Below, piece after piece: positions 9,030 to 33,630 of a DNA stretch of 64,000 bases. The position numbers and the translations under genes were made by a program. Origin of the DNA: Drechmeria coniospora (taxonomy: Eukaryota; Ascomycota; Sordariomycetes; Hypocreales; Ophiocordycipitaceae). The DNA lies in the NCBI RefSeq assembly GCF_001625195.1, contig NC_054390.1, positions 3,310,027-3,374,026 on the forward strand. The letters run 5' to 3'. Under the pieces are notes generated by a model. It ran no database searches and was not told the origin of the DNA. It was given only the letters and a program-made list of their open reading frames with translations. Numbering within the stretch: position 1 is the first letter of the stretch; each line of letters starts with the position of its first letter.

Positions 9030-10020
9030 CTTGTAGAAGCTACTTAGTTGTACTCCGTACTTAGTAATTAAGTACTTACTGGACTTGAGTCTTCTTCACT
9101 GACGGTCTGGCAGATGTCACGGCCGTCGGTACTCGGAACACACCCACACATCTCCGTGCGATGGAAAATGTCTTCCCGAGAAGGATTTCTACAAGTACCT
9201 GCATGCTTGTATGCTCGGCTTTGTCGACTATTCGGTGTAGGTGTACTTACTTGTTGACAAGCATGTGCACTTCTACTTACACCTACACGGGTGGCATGGG
9301 CATTTAGATACAATCACCGATGGGTGCAGCAGCACCGTCACGTACCGGCGGCATGTTTATATGCCCATGCAGTGCTCCGTAAGTGCAGCATACTTACAAC
9401 TACTTGCACTTACAACAAAGTACATGCGCATTTACCTCTGCTTTTATTACTACCAAGTACTTGTAATTACTTGCTTAGTTGTAAGCATGCATGTATTTAC
9501 GACTACAGTACAGTACTCCGTACTTACAGTGTAAGTAAAGGTGTACTTGCATGTAAGTACTCCGTACAGAACAAGTACATGTTCTTGTACCAAGTACATG
9601 TGGTTGTAAGTGTCGGCGTACATCGATATTCAATTACGTACGTTATATCCCATGTGCTCGGACTCGTACAAGTACTTACATGTACACCGTCACATCGGGT
9701 CCATGTACTGAGTACAGCTACACGTTTTGTGCACCTTCGACAGAGTACACTTACAGTATAGGTACTTACACATAACCCACTTCCATCAAAGGTACCTGCA
9801 TGTACTTCGTACTTCGTACTCGTACAGGAATAATCGGCGTTCTTGAGAGTATTACAACTACATGTACTCCGTACAGCACTTCCCATATAGAAGCAAGTAC
9901 TTACAGATACTCCGTACATCGTGTACACCTGCATGTACCAGTACACTTACTTGCATGCAAGTAAGTAAGTAGTTGTACACGCACAGTACTGTATGCATGT
10001 GTACTGTACTTACTTGCGTA
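9030..10020. repeat. Longest GTAC-motif cluster (~1 kb)
   Basis: Nearly continuous TA-(2 to 5 bases)-TA units, with TACTCCGTAC near 9053, 9509, 9561, 9866 and 9911. Ends where the receptor gene's leader begins. Confidence 0.75.
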
Positions 10021-10143
10021 CTCTCGTCTCCTCACCCTCGCCCTTGCCGATGTCCTCCTTGGCAGATTCTTCTCCCAGATTTCCGCTCGTCTCATGCCGC
10101 CACCTCCTCCGTGCCCTCCTCTTCTTCCCTCCCAGCCGTCGAC

Positions 10144-10179
10144 ATGTCCAAGCCGGACGGAAGCAGCTCGTCGTCCTGA
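10144..10179 (+). promoter_or_regulatory. Candidate upstream ORF (11 codons) of the receptor gene
   Basis: ATG 10144 has a G at -3 and runs MSKPDGSSSSS to TGA at 10177-10179, leaving only two bases before the main ATG at 10182, in another frame. A serine-rich peptide ending so close to the start could lower or gate translation by re-initiation. This assumes that transcription begins upstream of 10144, which is not shown. Confidence 0.4.
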
Positions 10180-10181
10180 CA

Positions 10182-11684
10182 ATGACCTTGGAAAAACTGA
10201 ATCTCGACAGTCGGTCGCTGAGCCCGTTGCCCTCGAGCCTGCGCGGCGGCCTCATCGCCATCGCCGTCCTCGCTCTCGTCTCCTTCGTCGCCTGTGCGAC
10301 GCTCTTCGTCTATCTCACCACCAAGCTCGTCGCCTGGCGCTACTTCCTCAAGGAGCACCCTTCACCACCCTCCCCCCAAGTGCCCGCCTCACCGCCTCAG
10401 CCGACGACGGAATTCACCCTCGGCATCGACGGCATCTTCAAGGGTCCCCCGCGAGATGGAGACCAGGATGACGCCGCTTCGGACCTCCCGTCGTCGGGTG
10501 CCGTCCTTCGCTCGCAGCCGGTCAGGAAGCCGCCGAACCAGTTCCTCGTCTTGATCTATAACCTCTTCCTCGCCGACATGCACCAGAGCCTGGCATTTCT
10601 GCTCAACGCCATCTGGCTGCGCCGCGACGGCATCCTCGTCGGCACCTCGACTTGCTGGAGCCAGGGCTTCTTCGTCTCGACGGGCAACTTGGCGAGCAGC
10701 ATGTTCATCATGAGCATTGCCATTCACACCTACATGTCCGTCGTCGAGAAGCGCCGTCCGCGCCAGAGATTTCTGTACCTTTCCGTCGTCGCCATCTGGC
10801 TCTTCGTCTACCTCGTGTCCCTTCTACCCGTTGCCCTGACGCGGAATGGTGAGGAACACGGCGGCTTCTACGTCCGCGTGGGCGCCTGGGTATGTCTTGG
10901 TCTTCCCGTCCGACCCGTCCGGGGACCGCAGCTAAGCGTTTGTCAGTGCTCGATGAACAAGGAGTACGAAAATCTCCGTCTCGCCACCCACTACTTGTTC
11001 ATCATCCTCGCGCTCACCATCACCTCGGCCCTCTACGTCACCACCTTCATCTCCCTGCGCCGACCGCGGACCCGGGCCCGCAAGACGGTCGACCCCGACG
11101 GCGAGGCCGTCTTGACGCACAAGACGGCCTTCCTCATCTACCCTGCCATCTACGTCGCCTGTACCATGCCCCTAGCCTTTGGCCGCATCGCTACCATGGC
11201 CGGCCAGAAGCTGCCATTGGGCTTCTTTTACTTTGCAGGTGCCATGATTGCCTTCAATGGCTTTTTTGACTGCTTGCTCTTCGGCTCGACCCGCAACGTG
11301 CTCATCTTCGGCCTCGCCGAGGACCTCGGTTCCGAGGATACGGGCGTCAAAACCTTTGCCTTTCTGCAGACGCCCAAGTCGCGCCAATTCGGCAACCTCG
11401 TCTGGATCGAGGGCGGACGTGCCGCGCCTGCACGGGAGGACCCCGTCGATCGCCCTTGCTTTTGGCATCGTCTGCGAAATGGTAGGCGGCGAACGGAACA
11501 CTGGCCGCGACAGGAGCCGCGAAACACGAGCCGAGCATCGCTGAGGTCCACGGCGATTCACATGGACACGGTCATGAGCGTCGTCGTCGAGGCGGGCGAG
11601 TCTAATCAGCATCAGAGCTACCCGCGCGCGGCCAGTGCGGCCACGTCGTCGCTCAAGAGCGCCGACGAAGTGTACATCAGCTGA
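10182..11684 (+). CDS. Seven-helix receptor-like protein (fungal GPCR, Git3/cAMP-receptor-like)
   Basis: Exons are 10182-10889 and 10947-11684 (481 residues). The 57-bp intron has a GTATGT donor, a CTAAG branch site and an in-phase GTCAG acceptor; retaining it would add 19 foreign residues between GAW and CSMNKEYENL. Seven hydrophobic segments are clear: an N-terminal helix, then ones starting at FLVLIYNLFLADMHQ, CWSQGFFV, FLYLSVVAIW, YENLRLATHY, TAFLIYPAIY and LPLGFFYFAG. A ~70-residue hydrophilic loop lies between helices 1 and 2, and a long cytosolic tail follows helix 7. This topology and the YNLFLAD motif fit fungal GPCR-like proteins of the Git3/Dicty-CAR group; the ligand is unknown. 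The chosen ATG immediately precedes the first helix and follows an 11-codon upstream ORF. Confidence 0.8.
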   Translation: MTLEKLNLDSRSLSPLPSSLRGGLIAIAVLALVSFVACATLFVYLTTKLVAWRYFLKEHPSPPSPQVPASPPQPTTEFTLGIDGIFKGPPRDGDQDDAASDLPSSGAVLRSQPVRKPPNQFLVLIYNLFLADMHQSLAFLLNAIWLRRDGILVGTSTCWSQGFFVSTGNLASSMFIMSIAIHTYMSVVEKRRPRQRFLYLSVVAIWLFVYLVSLLPVALTRNGEEHGGFYVRVGAWVCLGLPVRPVRGPQLSVCQCSMNKEYENLRLATHYLFIILALTITSALYVTTFISLRRPRTRARKTVDPDGEAVLTHKTAFLIYPAIYVACTMPLAFGRIATMAGQKLPLGFFYFAGAMIAFNGFFDCLLFGSTRNVLIFGLAEDLGSEDTGVKTFAFLQTPKSRQFGNLVWIEGGRAAPAREDPVDRPCFWHRLRNGRRRTEHWPRQEPRNTSRASLRSTAIHMDTVMSVVVEAGESNQHQSYPRAASAATSSLKSADEVYIS

Positions 11685-28010: not shown

Positions 28011-28526
28011 GGGGCGAATGGTGACGGCCAAACACTTGTTTCGTGATCTCGCCAACCACGTTTTTGTTTACCAAATCTCACTGATGCATGCACGATGCCC
28101 ACATTTGGCGGCATCATGATGATACGACTAATTATACGTTTGGCAGGGGAACGACTGGATGAGCGAGCTGGGTGGGAAACTTGAGATTCAGGGCAAATTT
28201 GCACGCCAAGTTTCTTTCCGTACAGTACATAACTTCGGATGCTTGGCATAGTCCTGGCAACGATGCCACAGACTGAGAAATTTGGGCAAAGTTGTTTGCC
28301 AATATCTCTTGCATGACATGTGGTGATGTCAGAGCACGGCGATGAGGTGCTGCAGAAATTAAGGAGCGCAGATGCGTCTGTGGAGAGCGGAGTATTATTA
28401 CTGTATTACTTTTAGACGTACGAGTACGGAGTATTCCATGTAATATTACCTACTCTCGGTCTACAAGTAATTTCAGCGTTAATACTCCGTACCGCATGTA
28501 GGTGCACATGTATACTCCGTACTCAG
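28011..28526. other. Intergenic region ending in a GTAC-motif cluster
   Basis: 3' region of the DUF6590 gene, then GTAC motifs from about 28390 to the transposon boundary, including TACTCCGTAC copies near 28483 and 28514. The transposon sits inside this cluster, which resumes on its other side. Confidence 0.6.
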
Positions 28527-28528
28527 TA

Positions 28529-28559
28529 CGGAGGCAGTCTTCAAAAATTGTATCCCGAC
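28529..28559 (+). repeat. Left terminal inverted repeat of the mariner element
   Basis: 31 bp starting CGGAGGCAGTC, identical to the reverse complement of 30029-30059. Preceded by TA. Confidence 0.95.
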
Positions 28560-28714
28560 AGGGGGCAGGGGTTAGGGGGGGGGGGGGGTTACATGACTAT
28601 TGTTTATTGATAACAAAATCGGCCGGGAAACCATACACGCGTTTATAGTAGTAACCTTCCCTCAACAATTCATACGTATCAATCAATTAAGATATCTCTT
28701 TTCAATAGCCCAAA

Positions 28715-29992
28715 ATGGCTCCAAATACAGATATTGCAACTAGGGCCTTAGTTATTGGCTTTAAGTGTACTAGCAAGACCTCTGCTGAGACTGCTGCCTC
28801 TATTGGTATCTCGGTACGACAAGTTAACCGTATCTTTGCAAGGGCTATTGAGCATGGATTTGATCCAAATCAACGGCCATTGGTTATAAGGGATAACTTC
28901 CTTTGTAATGCCCCGCAATTAGGGCGCCCGTTAAAGCAGACTAATAAAGCTATAGAGAAGGTTGTTACTAAGGTTCGAAGGGATCGATACGGCCGCAAAA
29001 AATTATATACTGATATTACCGGCGAACTTAGTATCGAGGGCTTACCAATGTCTGCTTCTACAGTTGGGCGAATCCTCAAAAAGGCTGGCTTTCGCAAGAC
29101 TAAGCCAACTAGGAAGCCTGGACTAACGAAGAAGATAAGATTAGATCGACTATACTGGTGCCTTAAGTATCGTAACTGGAGTCTTAATGATTGGAAGAAG
29201 GTAATTTAGTCTAACGAGACCTCTGTTATTTTACTATACCGACGTAGTAGCTATTGTATTTAGAGAAAATCCAACGAGCGTTTTGTTCGAAGCTGTATCC
29301 GCAAAAGGTGGAAAGGAGCCTTTAAGTTTATGTTTTAGGGCTGCTTTTCATATAATCGCAAAGGCCCTTGCTACTGCTGGAGCCCAGAGACTATACAAGA
29401 AAGAAAGGCTGCTGATTAAGCTATTGCTAAATGGAACGAGGAGCTAGAAGCAGTTGCAAAAGAGAAATGGGAGCTTGAAAATAGAATGCGCCGATTAAAC
29501 CTACGATAATTACCTAGAGCCAAGCCTAAGTATAAGTTTACTAAGAAGACCGGCAAGCTCTCTCGCCGAAAGGGCAAAGGTATTAACTGGTAGCAGTATT
29601 AGCAGAAGATCCTAATTCCGAAGCTATTCCTATTTGCAAAGGAAGAACCTAGATCAATCGTTCAAGAAGATAAGGCTCTAGCGCATAGCCACTTTGTACA
29701 GCAATATCTCTTCGATCTTTATAAGGTCCAGCGGCTACTTTGGTGCGGTAATTCTCTTAATCTTAATGCAATTGAGCCAGCCTGGCCCTGGATAAAAAGA
29801 CAAACAATAAGAAAAGGTGCTCCAAAGAGCTGAAAAGAAGCTATTATAGCTTGGAATACTGCTTGGGAAGAACTACCGCAAGAGGCAATCCAGGCCTGGA
29901 TTGAACGAATTCTATGGTATATTTAGCAGATTATTTAACTTAAAGGTGGAAATAAGTATAAAGAAGGAAGGGAGCCGGCCCTAGTAAATTAG
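28715..29992 (+). pseudogene. Tc1/mariner transposase, inactivated by in-frame stops
   Basis: ATG 28715 opens an intact N-terminal part (164 codons) with two helix-turn-helix DNA-binding units (SIGISVRQVNRIF and MSASTVGRILKKAGF). The frame then meets stops at 29207, 29261, 29336, 29417, 29507, 29591, 29600, 29831, 29924 and 29936, with no frameshift; the TAG at 29990 may be the original end. Several TAGs occur where the family has Trp, so TGG became TAG by G-to-A change. Two of the three catalytic acidic positions are Asn (SNET and SLNLNAIE), also G-to-A changes; the middle Asp is kept. This pattern is what RIP does to repeated DNA in ascomycetes. Confidence 0.9.
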
Positions 29993-30028
29993 GTAGTAGC
30001 ATTCTATAAAGGGTTTAGTGCATTTTTG

Positions 30029-30059
30029 GTCGGGATACAATTTTTGAAGACTGCCTCCG
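30029..30059 (-). repeat. Right terminal inverted repeat of the mariner element
   Basis: 31 bp ending GACTGCCTCCG, followed by TA; a perfect inverted match to the left end. Confidence 0.95.
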
Positions 30060-30560
30060 TACATTAATACTGTAATCCGTACCTAGTACTGTACTCCGTA
30101 GGTACTTACTAAGTACATGTACTGTAATTAATAGTTGTAAGTAGTTGTACTCCGTACTTACTGTACGGAGTACAGGTACGTCGGTGGGGCTTGGTCCACT
30201 CGGGTATCTGGCTCGCCAGGCCCCCGCTCTTTACCCACTTCGCGTTAGCCCACAACGGCTTTAGTGATACCTGTACATGTACTTTGATGCTCCGCAGGTT
30301 AACCTCAGTGCAAGTACTTTAATAATACTTGGGCACAGTACAACTACAAGTTACGGAGTACTAAGAACAAGTACTGCATTAGTTGGGTGTGGGGTAAAAT
30401 AGAACAGTACTCCATACAAGTGCACCTACAGTAAATGTACGGAGTATGGAGGACAGTACATGCTTACTACTTGCTAACTTGCACTTGATGTAGTACATGT
30501 ACATACATAGGTAGGTACATTTACAAGCATTAATTACATGTACGCCGTACAGAACCGGTA
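30060..30560. repeat. GTAC-motif cluster right of the transposon
   Basis: Runs of TACTCCGTA, TACGGAGTA, TACTTGTA and similar units with a short ordinary stretch at 30185-30260. It continues the cluster interrupted by the transposon. Confidence 0.75.
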
Positions 30561-31247
30561 TGGTACGGGAATAATAACTGCTGATCGAAGCCGCTGAGGA
30601 CCGAACTACTTAAGTATGCGCTCTAATCGATAAGCACACTGATCAAATGGCGAGTAAAACCAACGGCAGGTACGCCTACACCTACACCATGTCGGCAATT
30701 TTCGTTCCTTCATCGCTTCATTTGTGCTACGATACCATTACAATGGAGGCTCCCGAGAAGGCTCCATCCCTCTCCGCCTCGGCGGCATCACCACCGATGA
30801 TCCAATGAACCCGACTGACCCGGGAGGCACATTCGAACGACAGGCGGTTCGCGCTAGGGGCGGGCCGTTCATGCGGAGTTCTCCAACACTACGGAGTATA
30901 TTCCGCTTGGATCCATGATTGGTACATGCATGCACAATCACTTCAAGCCAAGTCAATATCCGGGCTTCTATGACCATTCGCTCATGTCGGGAACGATGTT
31001 GCAGGGCAAGGCATCTCCTACGATTGCCCCTTTGCCAGGACCCGAACGCCCTCGGCTCGTTCATTGTACGAGGTCATTGTCGTGACGGACGCGGCGTGGA
31101 CACGACACAGTCAACAAACGTCACGAGGCGGAAGATGATGCACCAACTCGGCAAGATTCTTGTTGCTGGTGGATACAGACTCTCCTTGACAGACTATGCG
31201 TTGCGTCTACCCGTGAATCCGTCGCCGGTACCTTGCTTTTGACAAAT
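30561..31247. other. Intergenic, no gene seen
   Basis: Contains the 3' region of the peptide gene on its right side. Open frames here are short and show no codon preference. Confidence 0.5.
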
Positions 31248-31564
31248 CTAGCGGCGGCGGCATCGGCAAACGTACTGGCCGCTGCCCGGGCCCCATCGCC
31301 ACTCGCAGCCCAAATCTCTGCGGTGGTTGCACTCGCGGGGTCCGTTCCACGCGCAATCCCTTGGGCGGCATCGCTTTGGAGGATGTTAGTCAAGGGTATC
31401 TCCTACAAGTCCTTTCGGAGCAGACTTACACCCCACTGGTTCACCTCGGGCATGTCGGCGGCGGAGACGTCTCCTTCGACGGCCTTGGCCTCCTCGGGGA
31501 CGGCAGCAGCCATGATGGGGGCAGCCAGTGTGCCGAAGAGCAGGAGGTTCGCGAGAAACTTCAT
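31248..31564 (-). CDS. Small secreted Arg/Trp/Cys-rich peptide precursor (86 residues)
   Basis: Two exons, 31564-31430 and 31373-31248, are separated by a 56-bp intron with a perfect GTAAGT donor, a CTAAC branch site and an AAAG acceptor, in phase. Exon 1 encodes a strong signal peptide (MKFLANLLLFGTLAAPIMA) and an acidic segment of about 24 residues ending NQWG. Exon 2 encodes 41 residues with six cysteines spaced C-x4-C-x7-C-x7-C-x12-C-x-C, 11 Arg, no Lys and three Trp, ending CRCRRR; its net charge is about +7. An anionic pro-part before a cationic, disulfide-rich mature part is typical of antimicrobial or effector peptides. The spacing lacks the CxxxC of CS-alpha-beta defensins, so the family is unassigned. 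Other frames of exon 2 are open but have no cysteine pattern. Confidence 0.82.
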
Positions 31565-31660
31565 TTTGGACTGCTTGCAAGTAGCTGACGATTTGTTTTA
31601 GGTGTCGTGTTGATTCTTGATGCCGGGATAGCAGTCGAAAAGGTGCGACGGACGGCAGGT

Positions 31661-31667
31661 TTAAATA
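31661..31667 (-). promoter_or_regulatory. TATA-like box of the secreted peptide gene
   Basis: TATTTAA on the minus strand about 97 bp before ATG 31564, followed by a leader rich in CA and AAC (AATCAACACGAC), as in strongly transcribed fungal genes. Confidence 0.45.
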
Positions 31668-33630
31668 GTTTTGATGCTGAGTCAAACGCAGGTAAGCCGG
31701 CCAGCCTCCAGACGAGCACAGTCGAATATCGAGCGCATACCGTCCGCCCGTGTGCATCTGCAGGGACAGCGACACCATAATGCATTCACACTAGAATATG
31801 AATCGTCGACTAGACTTGGCCTCGGCGCATCGGGCCATCTCAGTGCCGCTTCCCCGTTGCGGACGATTCCCGTCTCCAGCGCCTCGGCGGCTGCTGCATC
31901 CATACATGAACAGTGCAATTCGTGTAATATTACAACCTGCTCGACTATATGGAACGAAATAACAGCAAGGCTTGGGTAGGCCATTGGCCTTTTTGCTTGA
32001 TGCAACGCTACCTCTCCTAGCCCAAATGGGAAGCTCAGCAACGAGTGACGGGCCGTGCAGTTTCATGAGGACGGGACGCAAGTTCTGCTAAGCCGCTATC
32101 GAACGGATCCCCTCTCGCCGCGATCGCAGTTGGCGACGGATCATGACATAATGCGATGCTCATCTTCGTCGCACAGCCAATCGCGGGTTTCGGGGCCTTG
32201 GCTGTCGAGTACGAACATGCAACTCATTTCAGATGTAATGATTCTACGCTTTGCTCCAAACCAAGGTGGAATAAATGCCTCGCTGCAGCCATTTCAATTT
32301 CAATAATTCCCCTCTTCTACAGGCTAGGTGGTGCAGTAGCTCCCATGCTACCATGGCTGCTTACTGGACTTACTGGTCACGAAAAATATCGCCAATATGG
32401 GTCTGAGTAGCGACCCTGCTGAGGAATTCCAAAGCGGCTTATGCAAATTCACGATGCAGGGTTCCCCCATTCAAACGGACGCGGCATAGTGACGAATACT
32501 CCCGTCCGCGTGCTATACATTGTCACCAGTACGCCAATCGTTGGGAGGACGAACTCTCCATGATGCCCCCATCGGTCTTGAACAAGGATGGGCGGAAGCC
32601 TCGTCAGGATACATACGAGGCGATGACATCAGTCCTTCTCAATCTTCTCGACTGCAATCTCAACATATTCATACCGATGCATGTCCATGCAGAGGCACAG
32701 CAGAGTGACGTATAATTCCCCTTCATGGAGAACTGAATGCACCAAAGAAAGCATCATGTAAATCCAAGGTTCTTGCATCGCTAGGTTTCATGGCAAGGGA
32801 CTGACTGCAATGCCGTGTGCCACCCGGAGCATTTGCAATTTTCCGAATAGTCCAAGGCTCAGGACGTGGCCCTCCGCACCCACGTCTTACACCTGCGTCT
32901 TACATCGACTAGGGTCTCGACTCTATAATAACACAGATATAGGTGTCATCGGGAGTTGTTTGAGCTATTAACTAAAGAACAGGCTTACAGTACGCACGTC
33001 TAGGAGGCTTCTACTCCCTACAGTCACTACTACGACCAGAAATATATACATGTACCTCTTCACAGCAATGCAGCTGCACCTACGCGCGTACGAACGAAGA
33101 CGCTTGGTGCATGTAATCCCTCGTTGGTGCGGAATGCAATACCAGTACGTCTAGCTAGGTCCAAGTGTCTCCAGCGAGTTTATCCGATGCAGCCTCTCCA
33201 GTGGTGACTACGTTCAATGCTGTACGGCTTTCATGCAAGTACAACATTGACGCGCACTTGGGACGAAATTGGGACAGGTGCTTGAGCCGAGCGACATTCT
33301 GTGATTTCGTCCAAGTATCTACAGCGCCGACAACAGCGGTCGACTCGTCCTCATGTGCAGAAAGTGTTTTTGCCGAGGTCAAATGAATGCGGGTGCTCTA
33401 GTGATACTCTTCAGCGTCTTGCGCAGGCCCAGTGATGCGTGTCCGGCATGGAAGGCATCCTTCGTCCACGGTCTGGTGTCGTTTGTCAAACCTTGCTTCG
33501 CTTGGCAACAACGTCGCGCCCAACTCCAACGTACAGATACGTGCCATGGATTGGGCCAGCTGCATCCTTTGAATTAGCAACGTTACCGCGCCACGCTACT
33601 GCATGCCATTTTCTCCCATTCATAACCCGA

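What the first reader, a model, noticed from the sequence alone, without database searches (positions are those of the whole stretch)
31248..31564. Hidden two-exon gene for an Arg/Trp-rich six-cysteine secreted peptide
Seen: signal peptide, acidic pro-segment and, across a textbook intron, a 41-residue basic part with six cysteines (C-x4-C-x7-C-x7-C-x12-C-x-C), 11 Arg, no Lys and a CRCRRR end. Each exon alone is too short to be noticed as an ORF, and longer open frames overlap it. The charge layout resembles host-defence or antagonistic peptide precursors, but the cysteine spacing does not match CS-alpha-beta defensins, so it may be an undescribed family.
Basis: partly seen in the sequence, partly recalled or inferred. 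Interest (0 to 1): 0.75.

Follow-up and report, generated by a model that had tools for sequence, protein, structure and literature searches.

The report
Orphan six-cysteine secreted fungal peptide gene
A nematode-killing fungus carries a small, real-looking two-part gene for a secreted, positively charged, six-cysteine peptide with no sure relatives; one public gene set already reads it this way and another reads it in a different, probably wrong, frame.

Summary
On the minus strand, exon 1 (31564-31430), a 56-nt intron and exon 2 (31373-31248) give an 86-residue preprotein: signal-like start, acidic stretch, then 41 residues with C-x4-C-x7-C-x7-C-x12-C-x-C, 11 Arg and no Lys. The window is Drechmeria coniospora, a nematode endoparasite. 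The gene is not hidden: strain Swe2's gene set holds the same protein (RJ55_04543, one residue different). The window's own assembly annotates the locus as DCS_04056, with another intron and frame. No homologue was found beyond the two gene sets, by searches that miss distant relatives. The only sequence lead is the antifungal protein NFAP2 (PDB 8rp9, E 0.12-0.53): a shared N-x-P-x2-C-x-H-x5-C-x-[WFY]-x2-G-P motif, but other cysteines, gamma-core and introns differ, so it is not filed there. Best reading: a species-specific secreted cationic disulfide peptide, probably antimicrobial or antagonistic; expression and target untested.

The parts
31430..31564 (-). Exon 1: 45 codons, signal-peptide-like start (about residues 1-19) and acidic, cysteine-free segment (about residues 20-45)
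   Evidence: synonymous codon score +0.223; same in RJ55_04543 except F10L
31374..31429 (-). Intron of 56 nt, phase 0: GTAAGT donor, CTAAC branch site (branch A at 31386), AAG acceptor, the first AG after the branch site
   Evidence: RJ55_04543 implies the same splice
31248..31373 (-). Exon 2: 41 codons + TAG, basic domain C-x4-C-x7-C-x7-C-x12-C-x-C ending CRCRRR
   Evidence: identical in RJ55_04543
31661..31667 (-). TATA-like box TATTTAA about 97 nt upstream of the ATG
   Evidence: pattern only
31403..31444 (-). Rival intron implied by DCS_04056: 42 nt, donor GTGAAC, acceptor TTGTAG, no CTRAY inside
   Evidence: deduced from P0002 against the window
31121..31402 (-). Rival second exon (frame B) implied by DCS_04056; codon use looks non-coding

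Best explanation
A genuine two-exon gene of Drechmeria coniospora encodes a secreted, species-specific, cysteine-rich cationic peptide. Shown by sequence: the spliced frame, its coding-like codon choice, the anatomy, and the same protein in a second strain's gene set. Inferred: the signal peptide sends it out of the cell; the acidic segment balances the basic domain until it is removed or folds back; three disulfides hold a compact core with a C-terminal beta-hairpin (CEWRW...YVCRC, Cys23 facing Cys38 in exon 2 numbering); and the Arg/Trp-rich surface binds negatively charged membranes or polymers, so that it acts as an antimicrobial (antifungal or antibacterial) antagonist while the fungus holds a nematode carcass, or against the nematode itself.
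For: Anatomy and chance test. Same protein annotated in strain Swe2. Exon 2 frame A synonymous codon score +0.169, at the 57th percentile of 4000 drawn in-frame coding segments; fraction of off-frame draws reaching it: +1 1.8%, +2 0.7%, antisense 5.2%, 0.1%, 10.8%. Frame B scores -0.081 over the same stretch and -0.177 beyond frame A's stop. AlphaFold2 on the 41 residues alone gives mean pLDDT 75.5 with strands 23-27 and 34-38; the 86-residue run gives a hairpin in the same register. The one PDB match among 177,635 sequences at E up to 10 is a fungal six-Cys antifungal protein, and 0 of 20,000 free shuffles and 1 of 20,000 Cys-fixed shuffles reach the peptide's score against that family's profile.
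Against: No transcript or peptide data seen. Amino-acid use is unusual: full codon log-odds of exon 2 only +0.006 per codon against +0.192 (sd 0.145) for coding segments, and antisense frame 2 of the stretch has a synonymous score of +0.138, close to frame A's. The acceptor AAG is uncommon (recalled); two small checks in this genome found only CAG or TAG (5 introns of a survey; 4 introns read by eye in L007). The window's own public gene set uses another frame, and its paper describes an RNA-guided pipeline (PMC4792172, section 21). No dibasic site precedes the first cysteine. No assay or target known.
Confidence: 0.5

Rival explanations
1. The peptide is a nematode-directed effector (host manipulation or blocking of worm antimicrobial peptides), not an antimicrobial.
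For: D. coniospora is a near-obligate nematode endoparasite; 124 of its 257 small secreted protein families are species-specific and 210 SSPs are expressed during growth with prey (PMC4792172 section 13). No relatives found here.
Against: No infection expression seen for this gene: the 17 genes of Table 8 of PMC4859500 include no 86-aa protein, though the table is a selection and its gene numbers could not be matched to RJ55_04543. The strongly cationic Arg/Trp domain fits membrane-active antimicrobials at least as well (inference).
Confidence: 0.3
2. The locus is coding but DCS_04056 is right: exon 2 is read in frame B and the cysteine domain is never made.
Against: Frame B codon use is non-coding-like (-0.081, 4th percentile of coding draws; tail -0.177), its intron is 42 nt with donor GTGAAC and no CTRAY site, and no protein other than DCS_04056 itself was found to share frame B.
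Confidence: 0.07
3. The second exon derives from the NFAP2-type antifungal protein family with its cysteines rewired.
For: Ungapped alignment of residues 8-33 with NFAP2 8-33; motif N-x-P-x2-C-x-[HY]-x5-C-x-[WFY]-x2-G-P in 16 of 16 aligned NFAP2-family proteins and in the query; shuffle test.
Against: E 0.12-0.53 in a search of the PDB; the family profile does not raise the score (14.6 against 17.1 bits for NFAP2 alone); hhalign probability 41%; CxCx3C, gamma-core, second intron and intron phase not shared.
Confidence: 0.15
4. No protein is made: a chance open frame in a stretch beside a transposon.
For: Orphan; a Tc1/mariner-type element ends 1.2 kb away.
Against: Signal-like exon, intron and six-Cys exon are jointly rare, codon choice is coding-like in both exons, and two gene sets call a gene with the same start.
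Confidence: 0.05

Closest known systems
RJ55_04543, hypothetical protein, D. coniospora strain Swe2 (P0001)
   Same: Same length, same splice implied, exon 2 identical
   Different: Residue 10 is Leu, Phe in the window
DCS_04056, hypothetical protein, D. coniospora (P0002), on a contig of the same length as the window's
   Same: Same start and first 40 residues
   Different: Other intron and other frame of exon 2; 133 aa, this cysteine domain absent
NFAP2-type antifungal proteins (PDB 8rp9; 21 proteins fetched)
   Same: Secreted, basic, six Cys (NFAP2 as described in PMC10273333); N-x-P-x2-C-x-H-x5-C-x-[WFY]-x2-G-P core; an intron shortly before the Cys-rich core
   Different: Framework C-x-C-x3-C-x7-C not met; GXC gamma-core not met; intron phase 0 and further upstream rather than phase 1 in the codon after IATSP; no second intron
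CS-alpha-beta defensins
   Same: Six Cys, basic, final C-x-C (family features recalled)
   Different: No C-x3-C; pattern test negative

Membership tests
Fungal small secreted proteins (criteria of PMC4792172: 50-300 aa, signal peptide, no membrane target) | 50-300 residues | tested here: met
   86 aa
Fungal small secreted proteins (criteria of PMC4792172: 50-300 aa, signal peptide, no membrane target) | Signal peptide by SignalP, no TM by TMHMM | tested here: inconclusive
   Only a hydrophobic-core rule was run; SignalP and TMHMM not available
NFAP2-type antifungal proteins | Cys framework C-x-C-x3-C-x7-C at the N-terminal side | tested here: not met
   only C-x7-C shared
NFAP2-type antifungal proteins | Significant sequence similarity | tested here: inconclusive
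   E 0.53 and 0.12; shuffles 0 and 1 of 20,000; hhalign probability 41%
NFAP2-type antifungal proteins | Intron 1 after the first base of the codon following IATSP (phase 1) and intron 2 after ISG, as I deduced from the unspliced ORFs P0018, P0022 and P0023 | tested here: not met
   Ours phase 0, seven codons before the aligned Ala, no second intron
NFAP2-type antifungal proteins | Disulfides 1-5, 2-3, 4-6 (abbcac) | not testable with these tools
   Pattern from PMC10273333 passages; model coordinates not available, though the hairpin register would suit a 4-6 bond
CS-alpha-beta defensins | C-x3-C plus C-x-C | tested here: not met
Gamma-core antimicrobial peptides (formula recalled) | G-x-C with a Cys 3-9 residues away, or C-x3-9-C-x-G | tested here: not met
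   Both patterns negative; a third order, C-x3-9-G-x-C, was not run, but no G-x-C is present by eye

The most novel reading that the evidence does not exclude
A lineage-specific peptide with its own six-cysteine framework, either born in D. coniospora or descended from an NFAP2-type antifungal protein by moving two of its cysteines, used by a nematode endoparasite as a weapon against microbes or its host.
Probability: 0.2. Interest if true: 0.6.

Novelty: new member of a known kind. Interest (0 to 1): 0.36.

Why it matters
It settles, as far as sequence can, a conflict between two public gene sets of a model nematode pathogen: the window's own assembly seems to carry the wrong frame at this locus. 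If expressed, the peptide is a compact, testable candidate for fungal antagonism or infection in the C. elegans system. Otherwise it is one of many species-specific small secreted proteins of fungi.

Full report
What is there. On the minus strand, 31564-31430 and 31373-31248 join across a 56-nt intron (31429-31374) into an 86-codon frame. The start is signal-peptide-like, followed by a cysteine-free acidic stretch; exon 2 encodes 41 residues with six cysteines spaced 4-7-7-12-1, 11 Arg, no Lys and three Trp, ending CRCRRR. The donor is GTAAGT, the branch site CTAAC, and the acceptor is the first AG after it, an AAG. A TATTTAA box lies about 97 nt upstream of the ATG. The signal peptide was judged only by a hydrophobic-core rule; SignalP was not available.

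Where it comes from. The protein is 99% identical over its length to RJ55_04543 of Drechmeria coniospora. DCS tags belong to the Zhang et al. assembly LAYC00000000 (PMC4792172, section 21); RJ55 tags belong to strain Swe2 (PMC7500977, passages).

Two annotations conflict. DCS_04056 shares the first 40 residues, then leaves exon 1 fifteen bases earlier (intron from 31444) and enters at 31402 in another frame, ending at 31121. Its intron would be 42 nt, with donor GTGAAC and no CTRAY inside. A codon model trained without supervision on 53 open frames (20,763 codons) from 20 loci of 10 kb and the window less 30001-33000 scores synonymous choice in exon 2 at +0.169 per codon in frame A, -0.081 in frame B and -0.099 in frame C; beyond frame A's stop frame B falls to -0.177. 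Coding segments average +0.144 (sd 0.124). Off-frame draws reach frame A's value in 1.8%, 0.7%, 5.2%, 0.1% and 10.8% of cases for +1, +2 and the three antisense frames; antisense frame 2 of exon 2 itself scores +0.138, so antisense is excluded less sharply. Against the gene, the full score including amino-acid usage is only +0.006 in frame A (coding mean +0.192) and +0.001 in frame B. A noisier first model also put frame A above B and C on synonymous choice, but B above A on the full score.

Chance. A rule-based scan of 264 kb, both strands, found 7 signal-exon/intron/short-exon models, 2 with four or more cysteines and one with six, this one; ten dinucleotide shuffles averaged 1.2 models and none with four cysteines.

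Relatives. The protein search found 2 proteins at E up to 1 among 3 candidates, both from D. coniospora; a search with the DCS model found the same two among 186 candidates. The method needs shared five-residue words, so distant relatives would be missed. Pfam gave nothing above its cut-off. In the own genome exon 2 has no other match better than E 0.78. No relative was confirmed in the bacterial and archaeal contigs.

The NFAP2 lead. The single PDB match is NFAP2, an antifungal protein (8rp9), at E 0.53 with the precursor and 0.12 with the 41 residues. I fetched 21 family members and aligned 16, leaving out five partial or unspliced models (P0015, P0017, P0018, P0022, P0023). The peptide scores 14.6 bits against the mature-region profile, a value reached by 0 of 20,000 free shuffles and 1 of 20,000 shuffles with cysteines fixed; against NFAP2 alone it scores 17.1 bits, reached by 0 of 20,000 in both. 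hhalign gives 41% probability. All 16 and the query share N-x-P-x2-C-x-[HY]-x5-C-x-[WFY]-x2-G-P; of the five left out, which were not in that count, P0015 and P0017 lack part of it by eye. Two of NFAP2's first three cysteines are Trp and Gly here, the GXC gamma-core is absent, and the introns differ. Three unspliced ORFs (P0018, P0022, P0023) show, by my reading, NFAP2's first intron after the first base of the codon following IATSP (Tyr, or Phe in P0018; phase 1) and a second after ISG, whereas here the intron is phase 0, seven codons before the aligned Ala, and no second one exists. NFAP2 homologues are reported in Fusarium, Claviceps and Acremonium among others (PMC5025423, passages), so descent is possible, but I do not file the peptide there.

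Structure. AlphaFold2 without relatives gives mean pLDDT 75.5 for the 41 residues, with strands 23-27 and 34-38, and 59.7 for the 86-residue form, with strands 65-73 and 78-85: the same hairpin register, placing the fourth and sixth cysteines opposite each other (my inference from the strand limits; no coordinates were seen). Foldseek found no credible match.

Function. Secretion, six cysteines and a cationic Arg/Trp surface point to an extracellular disulfide peptide that binds anionic membranes or polymers. I put an antimicrobial or antagonistic role first and a nematode-directed role second; neither is tested. The species has 312 SSPs in 257 families, 124 of them species-specific (PMC4792172, section 13), so an orphan of this kind is expected. 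No 86-aa gene is among the 17 of the infection table of PMC4859500 (section 20), which is a selection; supplementary tables could not be read. Neither locus tag occurs in the held paper library.

Neighbourhood. To the left lies a Tc1/mariner-type element with perfect 34-nt terminal repeats, 28526-30062; to the right are carnosine N-methyltransferase and importin/HEAT frames. I scanned 28 of the 77 open frames of 170 aa or more listed against Pfam; 5 of the 28 had a match at E up to 0.001 (7TM receptor, carnosine N-methyltransferase, HEAT/importin, SPRY, and DHHC below its cut-off). None of these suggests a peptide biosynthesis cluster, but no gene finder was run and multi-exon genes would be missed.

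Noticed in passing
window 28526-30062 (+): Tc1/mariner-type element with 34-nt terminal inverted repeats that match perfectly; its first coding piece has an HTH_Tnp_Tc3_2 match, two later pieces had none, and the coding region is split over frames. The genome search scored only one further short piece (82% over about 118 bases).
   Followed up: partly
L007 (G000:C1:12046335 onward): A gene that reads by eye as five exons for a secreted protein with repeats of a C-x5-C-x2-C-x9-C unit (x4 in the last); its signal peptide is 54% identical over 26 residues to that of the finding.
   Followed up: partly
window 30040-30560: Intergenic stretch dense in short TACGGAGTAC / GTACATGTAC-like palindromic repeats.
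   Followed up: no
window 9969-11684 (+): 571-aa open frame with a rhodopsin-type 7TM match (and a weaker Git3 match below cut-off), a likely fungal G-protein-coupled receptor.
   Followed up: no
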